Source: Heterostelium multicystogenum (taxonomy: Eukaryota > Evosea > Eumycetozoa > Acytosteliales > Acytosteliaceae). From it: a DNA stretch of 64,000 bases. Made by a program: the position numbers and the translations under genes. The stretch is from positions 17,954-81,953 of the forward strand of contig RCNN01000210.1 in the NCBI GenBank assembly GCA_003667245.1. The letters are read 5' to 3'. This document shows positions 20,276-59,796 of this stretch, one piece after another. Below the pieces are notes generated by a model. That model saw only the letters and a list, made by a program, of their open reading frames with translations, was not told where the DNA came from and made no database searches. Numbering within the stretch: position 1 is the stretch's first letter; each line of letters begins with the position of its first letter.

Positions 20276-23200
20276 ATGAATAGACTACTATTCAATAATA
20301 TCAATAAACATATCAATCCACTGATCACTCCAACCACTCGTAGATACCACAGTTCATCTATCACTTTCTCCTCGTCTTCTAGGTAAGCATGACAGATTAT
20401 GTTCACTAACCGTTGTGATTAATTATTCTAACTCCTATATTGGTCTTATCCTGCATGCACATCTGCTTGGGTGTCACTTATTTGATAATACAGTGGCGAC
20501 AGCAATCAACAATGGAAGAAGCTGATATTCACTGATTTACATGTTTCTACCAAAACACTGGATAGATGTTTGGCTGTACTCAAAAGCATTAGAGAGCAGT
20601 CGGTCGAGCGATGCATCAATGATGTTGTGTTTCTGGGTGATTTCTGGCATCATCGTAATATTCTGCAGGTACGTCACATCGACAAACTATTGTTTGAGTT
20701 TGAAGAATGGCAGAAGCAAAAGATCAATGCAACATTCATTCCTGGAAATCACGATCAAGTTAGTTTGGATGGCTCTGTCCATGGAATTCAATTCTTGGCT
20801 TATTCAACAACATCACATTGGCAACCGATCCAATCTATGATCATGCGAATAGAATTGCATATCTGCCTTGGCGTGAGCAGAAAGACAAACAATCAAAGTT
20901 GTTCAGTGATCTCTATAATGAAGACGATCAGAAGAAACCATGGACAGTGTTTGCACATGCCGAAATTAAAGGCGCCATATCAAACAATAGCTATAAAACC
21001 CCTGGAAAAGTGACTGATACGAAAGGTATGGCCAAACTGCGGGCATGTTACTTGGGACACTATCATCAGAGACAACAGATTGGATCAAATACATGGTACA
21101 TAGGCAGTCCCTATCAGCAAAACTTTGGTGAAATGTACCATCCTCATGGTATTGCCATTGTGTCAAGTGGCGAACGAATAGAGCCAGAGTTTATCGATTT
21201 GGAGCAGCTACCAAAGCATCACAGGCTTTTCTATCCAACCGACTTTGTAGTTGGAAACGATAATAATACAGGCAAGCTGCAGAAAGTTAGAGAGTATGAT
21301 ATAGTTGAGATCAAAGCGACTAAAGATGACATGAAGCAGCAGCGATTCATTGATACAATCAACCAGCTCCCGATTCTAACCGAGCTAAGAAGAGTCATGG
21401 TGTCCAATGAAAACATCAACGGCCCAACAACTAATACGAACGCAACTGAAGTGAAAAGAAAGACTCGTAAATCAATGTCTTCCTACAAACTTGATGATTT
21501 CTTGGTGGAATATGTAGATAAGATGATTGTAAACGATAAGGCAAAGAGAGACTATTTGATTGATTATGGTTCTAAACTCCTGTCAAACATCAAGGAGAAT
21601 GTCATCACACCTATTGGCAGGAATGTCAAGATCACCAAAATGGATATCACCAATTTTGCTGGAGTAAAGGGTGACTTTTCTATTGATTTTATGCCAGGAA
21701 TGTTCATGATACGAGGAAAGATGGGTGTAGGAAAGAGTAGCATATTTGAAGCACTAGTCTGGTCACTGTTTGGTTCTACTTCCCCAAGAAAATCCAATGC
21801 AACCTCATCACTAAAAGGAGATGAGGTTATCAATGACAATGCCAATCTAGCTAAAGTCAAACTACATCTTGAGGTGGATGGTCGGCCAATCAGCATCACC
21901 AGATCCAAAAAGAGGAATCATGGATCTAAAATTGAAATAGATGGACTCAGTCCAGAGTATCGACAAGGTATCTCGACTGAAGACCAGCAATCTACCATTC
22001 ACAATATTTTGGGACTAGAGTATGATCTCTTTAGAATGTGTGTCTATCTTGGACAAGGATCTATTGCCAACTTTGCAACAGACACCGACAAGCGAAGAAA
22101 GGAACTGTTAATTCGCGCATTTTCTCTTGGAATATGTATTCCTGCTTCTAAGTTGGCAAAAGAAAATCGTAAGAAACAAGAGGTAAAGGTCGATGAGCTC
22201 AGGCGTAAACAGGAGAAATTGGCGGCATCATTGTCCACTTGGGACTCGCTTGACTTCCAAGAAGATATAAATAATTGGAACAAAGAAAGAAAAGACAGAA
22301 TAGCATATATCAAGGATACAATTACCCAAAAGCAAAACAGTTTGCTGGAAATTACAGAGCTATCAAACAATGGATCAACAGAAGATTCATCAACGCTAGA
22401 AGAGCAGAGAATTGATGCTCACAATGAGTTGAAGCAGCTAGAATTTGATATGAAGGAAACTTTAGAAAACTACCAGGCTAGCTTGGAATCAATTAATACC
22501 AAGTTTAACAGATGCCAGTTTTCAATTGACAAGAAGAAAGAGGAAATCAAATTGCTTGAGAAACAATTGAAAAAGCTAACTTTGAATTCCAACAAAGGAA
22601 CAACCCATACACATCACGCATCTGAGACCAATCCAATTACTTGCAGTGAATGCGGACAATCCATTGACCAAACTATACAAAATAACCAAATTGAACAATA
22701 CAAACTGAAGATTGAAAGCCTAATGGAGAGTATCGCCAATTTGAACATAGAATTGACTGGAATAGATAAAGAGAAAGCAACACTGAAAGCCCAGAGCTCC
22801 AACACTAACTTGGAGCACCAACAAAGAAGGCGTGAGCTTGACGCACAACTTCGCTCAATTGACTCCAAGCTACAAAATACAACAATGATTCAAATACAAT
22901 ACTTAAAGAATGATATTAGGGATCTGGAGTTTCAAATGTCACAAATTGACAATAACCAACTTAATCCATTCATATCCCAACAAAATATCAAGGAAAGCAA
23001 TATCTCAAAGCTAAAATCCGATATAAGTAGTATTGAAGATCAATTGGCAAACACAGAACTACCACTTCTGGAAACACTCAAGTTCTGGGAAGCTGGCTTT
23101 GGTAAAGATGGGCTCACAACGATTGCTCTGAATCATGTGATTGCAGAGATTGAGGATTACGCCAACGAATACCTCTCAATAATGTCGGGTGGAAAGCTGT

Positions 23201-23586
23201 TTGTGTCGCTCTCCCTCTCGGAAGAAGATTTAAGCATTGACGTAATGGAGTTGGATTCAGTGAGCAACAAGCCGCAACAGCGTTCCTTCTACCAGCTTTC
23301 AGGAGGACAAAGACGTTGCGTTGAGCTGGCATTCAGTCCATTTGCACTCTCTCAGGTTATCTTTAATCAAGTGGGCTCCCAAGTATCGCTCATGATCATT
23401 GACGAACTAACCAATCATCTCGATCAGCAAGTGAAACCAATCATATGTGACCTATTAAGGCAATTGAAAGAACGTGAGACCATCGTAGTGGTTGATCATG
23501 ACCAATCTGTTCTCAGTGAATTCGACAGTGTTTACAGTCTTGAACTCAACCCACACAATCAACAGCATTCACTTTCAGAAATCTAA
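20276..23586 (+). CDS. Single-chain Mre11/SbcD-like nuclease fused to Rad50/SbcC-like ATPase, probably mitochondrial
   Basis: About 1067 residues. Residues 1-35 (MNRLLFNNINKHINPLI then TRRYHSSS) are basic, hydroxylated and free of acidic residues, like a mitochondrial presequence. A calcineurin-like nuclease follows with all metal motifs in order: DLH (about 50), GDFWHH (84), GNHD (120), FAHAEI (about 190) and GHYH (224). The chain then continues into an SMC-type ATPase: Walker A GKMGVGKSS (about 444), a Q-loop-like region (VYLGQGSI), a coiled coil, a CSEC zinc hook (about 752), the return coil, signature LSGGQRR (about 972), Walker B SLMIIDE (about 1002) and VVVDHD. In bacteria, phages and eukaryotes these are normally two proteins acting on DNA ends. 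The intron 20383-20493 separates the presequence from the nuclease. One missing T at about 20814 breaks the frame between STTSH and LATDPIYDH; downstream 922 codons are open. Confidence 0.85.
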
Positions 23587-45610: not shown

Positions 45611-47536
<1,926 letters not shown>

Positions 47537-57676: not shown

Positions 57677-59796
57677 TTATATTATTTGTTGTGGTTGAAG
57701 CTGTTGTTTGTTGAACCGGTTTGTTGATTCTGTTGTTGTTCTTTCTACTTTCTTGTTTTGTTCTTCTACGAGCTTGGCGTATTCACCTTTGTACTCTAAC
57801 AGCTGGAAATGATTACCACGCTCAATGATGTGCCATTCTTTAGAACTAAGATCTCATCACAGTGCATGATGGTTGAGAGTCTGTGTGCGATGATCAATGT
57901 CGTTCTGCCCTTGGAATATCGTTCAGAGACTTTTGGATGTTTTTCTCTGTCTTGGAATCGAGCGCACTGGTTGCTTCGTCGAGAATCAAAATGGGTGGAT
58001 TTTTGAGAATGGTTCTGGCAATAGCCACTCTTTGCTTCTCTCCACCTGAAAGTCGGAGACCACGCTCCCGACTATTGTTGCAAATCCCTCTGGTGAATTA
58101 TTGATAAACTGAAGAATCTGTGCTCTGTCTGCTGCATCGATTAGATCTTCGTCGGAGCAATCACGCTTTCCAAATCCAATGTTGAATGCAATAGTATCGT
58201 TGAATAGTACGGTGTCTTGTGGAACTACACTATGGCGGCACGCAGTGAGACCTGTGTTACCGATCGAATATCTTTGATTTCCAACTAATATTTCACCCTC
58301 GTTGACATCGTAGAAACGACAGAGTAGACGGAAAATAGTTGACTTTTCCACCACCGGTTTCTCCGACAATGGCAACTGATTTTCCAGCTGGAACACGGAA
58401 AGACACATTGTCCAATATCTTGTTGCCATTCTTGTAGGAGAACGACACATTGTTGAATTCAATAGAGGGCAGCTCCTGATCTGCAGTGGTGTAGGAGAGT
58501 GGAACTGCGTTGGGAGCATCGTCGACTTCTGGTTTAGTGTTCAGCAGCTCTATAAGATTTTCCATATCTGTAAATGCTTGGATAATCATACGGTAGCTAG
58601 TTCCAAGCCAAGAGAGAGGCTGGAACATCTGTGCAATATAGGTGTTGATGGCGATGATATCACCAATAGTGAAGCCGCCCAGCGACGCCATGTATGTTGC
58701 GTAAAGGAGTCCCAGGGTAGATCCGATGATGATGATGGAGACTGACCAGTATTCAAAGCGACATATGTCGACTTGGCTTGTGCATTGATATTGTGGTATT
58801 GCTTGAGAGCCTCCTCATATCGAGAGCGCTCATATGCCTCTGAAGTAAAGTATTTGATAGTCTCAAAGTTCTGCAATGATCCATACGAATTGTCCGATGC
58901 TTCACGTTCTTTTTTGTTTGCCAGTCTTCTAAATTGATTTCGATACTCTGTGACTGAAAGGGTGAATGCTACATAAGCAATGCAGCAAGTGAGATTGATC
59001 ACTGAGAAGTAAAATCCATAGGAAAAGAGGAGGAAGATGGTCACAGTGAAAAGCTCCAATATTGTTGGGAAAATATTAATAGCAGAAGCGAGAGGAGAGT
59101 AACAATGCTATCAGTACCACGCTCTACAATCTTGATTAAACCACCACTTCTCTTGCTCAAGTGGAACGACAACGAAAGCTTGTGCATATGATCGAAAGTT
59201 TCGAGCGACACGACCCGAATCGCACCATTACTAACCTCCTGAAACACCAATCTCTCATGTCGAATATACTCTTTTGCACAATCGCCAGGAAACCAAACCA
59301 AAGTATCAGCTTAACTGGTACAACATCAGGTAAAAGAGTTTAAAATTTTCTAAACATATACATTCTTTGTTAGTTTGAGCTCTATTCTATCATGAATTTA
59401 CCTATGTCTATCTATATCTGTATAGGCAGGCATATGTATTACATACAGTGAAAATTTGTGGGACATATAAGTTGATTGCTTTCGATAGGAAGATGATAGA
59501 GACGGAGATGACGACTCTGACTTTTGCTGAGAATGTATTCTTGGTCCAGTAGTAAGGAAACAGCGCTTTTATCATGCTCCAAGCAGTGACGAACGAAGGT
59601 CTCTTCAAAGAGAAGTCCTCCGAATTCGGAGTGGCAAGCGACACACTCAGCTTGGCGAGTGGTACCTTATATTGCTTACTTTGTTCTCCGTACTATTTTC
59701 ACCCTCCACTTTCTCCAAAAGCAATCCTTTTTCCAGATCCACAGAATTCTCATTCTGTCGTACTGTCCTCATAGTCAAACCACCAAACCGACCCAT
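57677..59796 (-). CDS. ABC half-transporter of the ABCB6/HMT1 (ATM1-like) group
   Basis: Members export or import thiol conjugates, heme precursors or metal-chelate complexes in mitochondrial, vacuolar or endolysosomal membranes. The start at 59796 gives [17 protein letters not shown]. The membrane part includes [74 protein letters not shown] and [19 protein letters not shown]. These follow ABCB6 closely. The nucleotide-binding domain has Walker A GETGGGKST (interrupted by a break near 58340), [35 protein letters not shown] and AHRLST. The stop is at 57677-57679 after LQPQQII. An intron begins near 59455. Breaks lie near 59642, 59250, 58755, 58340, 58070 and 57905. The long N-terminal extra domain of animal ABCB6 is absent; start and localisation are uncertain. 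Confidence 0.85.

What the first reader, a model, noticed from the sequence alone, without database searches (positions are those of the whole stretch)
20276..23586. Mre11/SbcD-type nuclease and Rad50/SbcC-type ATPase fused in one mitochondrial-looking protein
Seen: a complete set of nuclease metal motifs (DLH, GDFWHH, GNHD, HAE, GHYH), a Walker A motif, a coiled coil with a CSEC hook, LSGGQ and Walker B lie in one continuous gene with no intervening stop or start, after an Arg-rich acid-free N-terminus (RRYHSSS). Known: Mre11 and Rad50, SbcD and SbcC, and phage gp47 and gp46 are separate subunits. Inference: a covalently linked DNA-end-processing machine for mitochondrial DNA, perhaps of phage or bacterial ancestry, separate from the nuclear MRN complex. 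A fixed 1:1 nuclease:ATPase ratio and an organelle-specific role would be new biology.
Basis: partly seen in the sequence, partly recalled or inferred. Interest (0 to 1): 0.9.

Follow-up and report, generated by a model that had tools for sequence, protein, structure and literature searches.

The report
Slime-mould fused Mre11–Rad50 DNA-end nuclease
A social-amoeba nuclear gene encodes a DNA-end-cutting nuclease and its ATPase partner as one protein; this fusion was described in slime moulds in 2011, but its likely mitochondrial address tag and its close kinship to genes of uncultured phages seem not to have been reported.

Summary
One gene (20276-23586, +) encodes Mre11/SbcD-type nuclease and Rad50/SbcC-type ATPase halves in a single product. 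The raw sequence is not free of interruptions: there is a 111-nt intron (20383-20493) and one frame break at about 20798. Relatives are intact there, and the window's Hsp70 gene is broken likewise, so an assembly error is likely.

The fusion is not new. Yoshida et al. 2011 (PMC3175470) described Mre11/Rad50 fusion proteins, naming Dictyostelium discoideum and Polysphondylium pallidum. The window gene is the ortholog in another species (69% to Heterostelium album PN500). Separate Mre11 and Rad50 genes exist in the same genome, so it is no misjoin.

Added here: (1) amoeba proteins have an N-terminal extension in which R-x-[YF]-[ST] (MPP R-3-like) is enriched over shuffles; the window itself has only a looser form; this supports but does not prove mitochondrial import; (2) the closest non-amoeba relatives are fused genes of uncultured phages, beside a UvsX-like recombinase in both contigs examined; amoebae plus phages form one fully supported clade; (3) algal fusions are separate. 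The direction of amoeba-phage transfer is unresolved. Localisation and biochemistry are untested.

The parts
20276..20382 (+). Exon 1: start codon and most of the N-terminal extension (MNRLLFNNINKHINPLITPTTRRYHSSSITFSSSS); presequence-like, no D/E in residues 1-36, RRYH at residues 22-25
   Evidence: MNRL start shared with P0001, P0002, P0003
20383..20493 (+). Intron, 111 nt, GT..AG, phase 2
   Evidence: inferred from the sequence and from alignment with relatives; no transcript data
20494..20797 (+). Exon 2, first frame: nuclease motifs I-III (DLH, GDFWHH, GNHD)
20798..20799 (+). Frame break inside the nuclease domain; read as X here; relatives are intact at this place
   Evidence: Hsp70 of the same window is broken likewise
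20800..21255 (+). Rest of the Mre11/SbcD-type phosphoesterase and following region (HAE, GHYH); end approximate
   Evidence: fold by homolog P0001
21484..21585 (+). Two-helix (HLH-like) linker between nuclease and ATPase, counterpart of P0001 helices 383-394 and 399-414; approximate borders
21625..22110 (+). N-terminal half of the Rad50/SbcC ATPase head with Walker A (21715-21741) and YLGQGS (22045-22062); end approximate
22111..23097 (+). Coiled-coil arms with CxxC (CSEC, 22642-22653) zinc-hook motif; approximate borders
23098..23586 (+). C-terminal half of the ATPase head: LSGGQ 23296, Walker B 23386, D-loop 23413, DHD 23494, stop

Best explanation
The gene is the dictyostelid Mre11/Rad50 fusion protein (MRFP), a single-chain, ATP-driven DNA-end nuclease. 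Shown here: both halves, the metal-binding and ATPase motifs and the CxxC hook are present and conserved, and one locus of it was found in a nuclear, eukaryotic setting, next to separate Mre11 and Rad50 genes elsewhere in the genome. Inferred from the known Mre11-Rad50/SbcCD mechanism: two chains pair through their nuclease and ATPase heads, ATP opens and closes the head over the nuclease site, the coiled-coil hook tethers DNA, and the enzyme cuts near blocked, hairpin or broken ends to leave a 3' tail. Inferred from the N-terminal extension: it acts in the mitochondrial matrix, feeding such tails to the bacterial-type RecA that the same nuclear genome encodes, for recombination-dependent repair or replication of mtDNA. 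Its nearest relatives outside amoebae are fused genes of uncultured phages, so the gene was exchanged, in one direction or the other, between a phage lineage and amoebae.
For: Domains. Orthologs in Heterostelium, Acytostelium, Cavenderia, Dictyostelium and Polysphondylium, Tieghemostelium and a Balamuthia fragment. Nuclease metal residues and the Walker A lysine invariant, hook cysteines and LSGG at least 90% conserved in 47 aligned proteins. Model of P0001 with nuclease, two-helix linker, head, coiled coil and hook, mean pLDDT 82.5, residues 1-48 disordered; best PDB match a chain of the Chaetomium MRN complex. Presequence signal: strict motif R.[YF][ST] in 6 of 11 amoeba extensions against 0.39 expected, 0 of 5000 shuffles as high; motif definition from passages of PMC3578813. 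Phage kin; amoeba + phage clade at 100 in four trees. Separate Mre11, Rad50 and own RecA.
Against: No localisation, expression or activity data. The window's own motif is RRYH, which meets only the loose pattern; P0009 too has only the loose form; P0001, P0005, P0072 and the Balamuthia and Tieghemostelium fragments have no strict motif. The strict motif is in 0 of 33 phage extensions, but shuffles of these short extensions expect only 0.16, so that absence says little; the loose pattern is above chance in phages as well (7 of 33, 8 of 5000 shuffles as high). Acidic residues occur in the extensions of P0006-P0008, the D. discoideum group. The amoeba sequences are related, so the shuffle test overstates independence. 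No presequence predictor was run. The window copy has a broken frame.
Confidence: 0.62

Rival explanations
1. The fusion protein works in the nucleus or cytosol as a second, non-canonical MR enzyme (for example on extrachromosomal palindromic rDNA or on foreign DNA), and the N-terminal extension is only low-complexity sequence.
For: The extensions are Ser/Asn-rich and those of P0006-P0008 hold acidic residues. SbcCD-type enzymes are known to cut palindromes (established knowledge).
Against: Acid-free start in the window and in 7 of 9 rows checked over the first 30 residues, and enriched R-x-[YF]-[ST] in extensions that otherwise align poorly.
Confidence: 0.25
2. The window gene is a pseudogene: the frame break at about 20798 is real.
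For: The break is present in the assembly and only one locus was found.
Against: The other 1065 codons are open and 69% identical to a relative over the full length; Hsp70 in the same window is broken the same way.
Confidence: 0.06
3. Artefact: nuclear Mre11 and Rad50 misjoined, or a bacterial or phage contaminant contig.
For: The assembly does seem to hold bacterial contigs, e.g. C257 with GC 0.60 and a recA gene followed by a recX-like ORF (judged by eye).
Against: Separate Mre11 at C79 and Rad50 at C124; intron, eukaryotic neighbours and GC 0.37-0.39; the same fusion on contigs of up to 4.9 Mb in other dictyostelids.
Confidence: 0.01
4. The gene came from giant viruses that infect amoebae (Mimivirus R555 type) rather than sharing its last ancestry with phages.
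For: Giant viruses hold MR fusions (PMC3175470; BFVD matches to Tupanvirus, Harvfovirus and others).
Against: Foldseek identities of P0001 to the named giant-virus entries listed are 11-16%, against BLASTP identities of 29-36%, mostly over about 95%, to the phage-type proteins (two different measures). P0195 and P0196, unnamed long proteins that may be from giant viruses, fall far outside, on long branches. No named giant-virus protein was put into a tree.
Confidence: 0.06

Closest known systems
Mre11/Rad50 fusion proteins (MRFP) of D. discoideum (Q8T663) and P. pallidum PN500 (D3AVR3), Yoshida et al. 2011, PMC3175470
   Same: Same order of domains, same group of organisms; the window gene is an ortholog (P0001 of PN500 is 69% identical over 100%). 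That P0001 is the D3AVR3 protein is my inference from strain and description.
   Different: Another species; in the 2011 main text 'mitochondri' occurs once, about octocoral MutS, and the phage relatives found here are not among its named cases
Fused SbcDC of uncultured phages (IMG/VR contigs L010-L015, L017-L019)
   Same: One chain with the CxxC hook; one fully supported clade with the amoeba proteins; proteins of this type are 29-36% identical to the window's
   Different: No strict presequence motif (0 of 33, 0.16 expected); phage replication neighbourhood in the two contigs examined
Algal, diatom and moss fusions (e.g. P0077, P0078, P0087, P0105, P0135, P0136)
   Same: Same domain order
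   Different: About 21-25% identity where most of the length aligns; a single clade with the amoeba proteins is rejected
E. coli SbcCD, T4 gp46/47, nuclear Mre11-Rad50
   Same: Same catalytic motifs and fold classes
   Different: Two separate polypeptides; E. coli and T4 lie far outside in the tree; nuclear eukaryotic rows were not put in my trees

Membership tests
Mre11/Rad50 fusion proteins (MRFP, PMC3175470) | N-terminal Mre11-like and C-terminal Rad50-like domains in one chain | tested here: met
   (with one frame break read as X); model of homolog P0001
Mre11/Rad50 fusion proteins (MRFP, PMC3175470) | Outside the canonical clades of the three domains of life | tested here: inconclusive
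   holds E. coli as the only canonical cellular row (plus phages T4 and A511), and the window lies far from it; canonical eukaryotic and archaeal rows were not included
Mre11/Rad50 fusion proteins (MRFP, PMC3175470) | Canonical Mre11 and Rad50 kept separately in the same cell (in the 2011 set, all but Deferribacter among cells) | tested here: met
Mre11/SbcD nuclease | Phosphoesterase motifs DxH, GDxx[DH], GNHD, H, HxH | tested here: met
Rad50/SbcC ATPase | Walker A, LSGGQ, Walker B, coiled coil with CxxC hook | tested here: met
Mre11/Rad50 enzymes | ATP-dependent nuclease activity on DNA ends | not testable with these tools
Mitochondrial matrix proteins | Cleavable basic, acid-poor presequence with an MPP motif | tested here: inconclusive
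   enriched motif across amoebae, but the window has the loose form only and no predictor was run
Mitochondrial matrix proteins | Presence in mitochondria | not testable with these tools
   the D. discoideum mitochondrial compendium (PMC9118663) is not held

The most novel reading that the evidence does not exclude
Amoebozoan mitochondria carry a phage-type, single-chain end-resection nuclease that, with a mitochondrial RecA, runs a T4-like recombination-dependent repair or replication of mtDNA; the gene was exchanged between amoebae and a lineage of uncultured phages that keeps it beside a UvsX-like recombinase.
Probability: 0.4. Interest if true: 0.65.

Novelty: new member of a known kind. 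Interest (0 to 1): 0.42.

Why it matters
The fusion itself is known, but if the mitochondrial reading is right it gives a tractable model organism (D. discoideum) in which mtDNA end processing is done by a dedicated, phage-related enzyme. That would add a recombination nuclease to the phage-related parts already known in mitochondrial replication and transcription (recalled; search listing only), and it ties a eukaryotic gene to a definite set of uncultured phage contigs.

Tried and rejected
Misjoined nuclear Mre11 and Rad50: rejected, both exist elsewhere. Contaminant: rejected for this contig, though bacterial contigs seem to exist in the assembly. One common origin of the amoeba and algal fusions: rejected by AU tests (log-likelihood 272 lower, p 1e-119, quick tree; p 1e-4). 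Simple phage-to-amoeba story: not upheld. One search gives amoebae 53 and phages 94; one search makes amoebae (73/99) and phages (85/83) sisters, with a Balamuthia fragment (39% of columns), nests the phages inside the amoeba rows (99/96; amoebae one clade in 0 of 200 bootstraps), nuclease only, has amoebae as one side of a branch (63/98) and does not reject phages as one clade (p 0.37). Bacterial source: two genome-contig scans found no relative (9 and 42 pattern matches, none confirmed), but each used two short patterns; against this, one metagenome protein of the phage-type clade, P0063, is filed in NCBI under an Acidobacteriota MAG. Named phages: tblastn of P0018 gave 928 records, all under 60% identity, and the 40 rows listed are all Listeria phages at 21-23%. 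The own-genome search with TIGR00606 never ran.

Papers: PMC3175470, text parts 1-3 of 5 and passages; PMC7824862, PMC10733785, PMC3578813 and PMC3942190, passages only; other papers in search listings only. The view that the mitochondrial tag and the close phage kin are unreported rests, in an open-licence PubMed Central library only.

Full report
What is in the sequence. The window lies in an unnamed 29.7 Mb genome at G000:C209:17954-81953 and is AT-rich and eukaryotic; its closest named relative by this gene is a dictyostelid. The gene starts at ATG 20276. Exon 1 (20276-20382) is joined by a 111-nt GT..AG intron (20383-20493) to exon 2, which ends with the stop codon at 23586. Exon 2 holds one frame break at about 20798, between open frames 20489-21013 and 20764-23586. 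Read with an X at that point the protein has 1066 residues, and a codon-by-codon check maps all others except the split codon 36 back to the window. All 15 relatives aligned have residues across the break. The Hsp70 gene of the same window is also split into two overlapping frames, so draft-assembly indels are the likely cause. Neighbouring ORFs are an upstream protein with a sub-cut-off transglutaminase-core match and a downstream FAD-dependent (DAO) oxidoreductase.

What it is. Pfam finds Metallophos, AAA_23 and SMC_N in one chain. PHROGs give SbcC-like phrog_77 at 1.5e-68 for the part from 20800 on, and metallo-phosphoesterase phrog_1649 (4.7e-6) and SbcD-like phrog_100 (1.1e-5) for a 96-residue nuclease piece. 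NCBIfam matches to SbcC and Rad50 are significant but far under their curated cut-offs. The closest protein is from Heterostelium album PN500, 69% over 100%; then Acytostelium (50%), Cavenderia (46%) and Dictyostelium/Polysphondylium (42-45%). The AlphaFold2 model of the PN500 protein (47-row alignment, mean pLDDT 82.5, pTM 0.63) has a nuclease domain, a two-helix linker, a split ATPase head and a hooked coiled coil; its first 48 residues are disordered. The best PDB match is a chain of the Chaetomium Mre11-Rad50-Nbs1 complex, at low whole-length TM-score (0.25) as expected for a long flexible chain.

Already known. Yoshida, Claverie and Ogata 2011 (PMC3175470, parts 1-3 of 5 read) described thirteen Mre11/Rad50 fusions including D. 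discoideum Q8T663 and P. pallidum D3AVR3, placed them outside the canonical clades, and noted that canonical genes persist beside them in all cells of the set but Deferribacter. The same holds here: Mre11 (Mre11_DNA_bind) at C79, and Rad50 at C124, whose top PDB hit is RAD50 at 4.8e-54. A search with P0001 finds no second fusion locus in the genome. In the 2011 paper 'mitochondri' occurs once, about octocoral MutS.

Mitochondrial address. The first 36 residues hold no D or E; 2 of 989 windows of that size in the rest of the protein do likewise. In 11 amoeba proteins the extension before the nuclease core holds R-x-[YF]-[ST] in 6, against 0.39 in shuffles (0 of 5000 as high); after dropping two near-copies, 4 of 9 (0.38; 0 of 5000). 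Of 37 phage-type rows 33 could be scored (in 2 the core was not recognised, 2 have no residue before it): 0 of 33 hold it, where shuffles expect 0.16, so that absence carries little weight. The looser R-x-[YFL]-[STAH], which the window itself meets (RRYH), is in 8 of 11 amoeba rows (mean 1.44, 0 of 5000; 6 of 9 without near-copies, 2 of 5000) but also in 7 of 33 phage rows (mean 2.5, 8 of 5000), so it is weaker evidence. Per residue the strict motif is about ten times as frequent in the extensions (6 in 590) as in the bodies (11 in 11110) of the amoeba proteins. Two amoeba fragments found later, Balamuthia P0161 and Tieghemostelium P0148, have no strict motif by eye, which makes 6 of 13. Nine rows were checked for D/E in the first 30 residues and 7 have none. 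The motif matches the R-3 site of the mitochondrial processing peptidase as given in a D. discoideum study, PMC3578813 (passages); that study also shows import of a presequence without a clear R-2, R-3 or R-10 motif. The rows are related and no presequence predictor was available, so this supports import without proving it.

Phage kin. An alignment-based scan of IMG/VR gave 338 relatives, best 80 kept. I read the ORFs of 25 of these 80 contigs: 9 hold a complete fused gene of 973-1289 aa (L014 and L017 look like one phage), 1 is fused but cut by the contig end, 14 hold the halves in separate neighbouring ORFs and 1 showed the nuclease ORF only. PHROGs were run on the neighbours in two of the nine: L018 has primase, PolA-type polymerase, SSB-like protein, UvsX-like recombinase, the fusion and a large terminase; L014 has PolA-type polymerase, UvsX-like recombinase, the fusion and a RuvC-like resolvase, with no structural gene among the ten ORFs tested. 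The other contigs are viral by IMG/VR's label only; their habitats were not looked up. Two scans of prokaryote genomes found no relative.

Trees. With 73 rows (29 of those 65 proteins, chosen by hand) amoebae plus fused phages form one group at SH-aLRT 100; algal fusions group with a split phage pair elsewhere. A joint clade of amoeba and algal fusions is rejected. Careful trees keep the amoeba + phage clade at 100/100 but disagree inside it: sisters, phages nested among amoebae, unresolved. P0009 and P0072 are counted with the amoebae by position; their organisms are not named. The dictyostelids are one group (100; 100/99). The gene therefore seems to have passed between amoebae and phages, and the direction is open.

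Mechanism and limits. By analogy with Mre11-Rad50/SbcCD (established knowledge), the protein should cut and tether DNA ends under ATP control; fusion fixes a 1:1 ratio. An own, AT-rich bacterial-type RecA gene at C92 (GC 0.35) offers a partner; I recall a report that the D. discoideum RecA homolog is mitochondrial, and no call confirmed it. I looked for a presequence upstream of the C92 gene and could not settle one. The strongest RecA hit, on C257, is on a GC-0.60 contig that looks bacterial.

Verdict. A real, conserved gene; the fusion is known; the mitochondrial tag and the phage sister lineage are additions worth testing.

Noticed in passing
window 45611-47280 and 57986-59107: Hsp70 split into two overlapping frames, and pieces of an ABC transporter in several overlapping frames: small indels in this draft assembly
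   Followed up: partly
L098 (G000:C257:14750-18532): GC-0.60 stretch with a recA gene followed by a recX-like ORF; looks like bacterial contamination in the slime-mould assembly (by eye)
   Followed up: partly
P0125 (EukProt gene15957, 1906 aa): BRCA2-type domains run into a fusion protein that lacks the first nuclease motifs; probably a gene-model misjoin, possibly a real neighbour fusion
   Followed up: no
L014, L018 (and by eye L001): Uncultured phage contigs of 101-108 kb in which a PolA-type polymerase and a UvsX/RecA-like recombinase lie just before the fused SbcDC gene; RuvC-like resolvase after it in L014
   Followed up: partly
P0135, P0136, P0143, P0147, P0077-P0108 in part: Algal and moss fusions form a group apart from the amoebae; several have long N-terminal extensions and might be organelle-targeted too
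   Followed up: no
P0161: Balamuthia mandrillaris record named AbcH.3 is the nuclease half of the same fusion, with no D/E in its first 30 residues
   Followed up: partly
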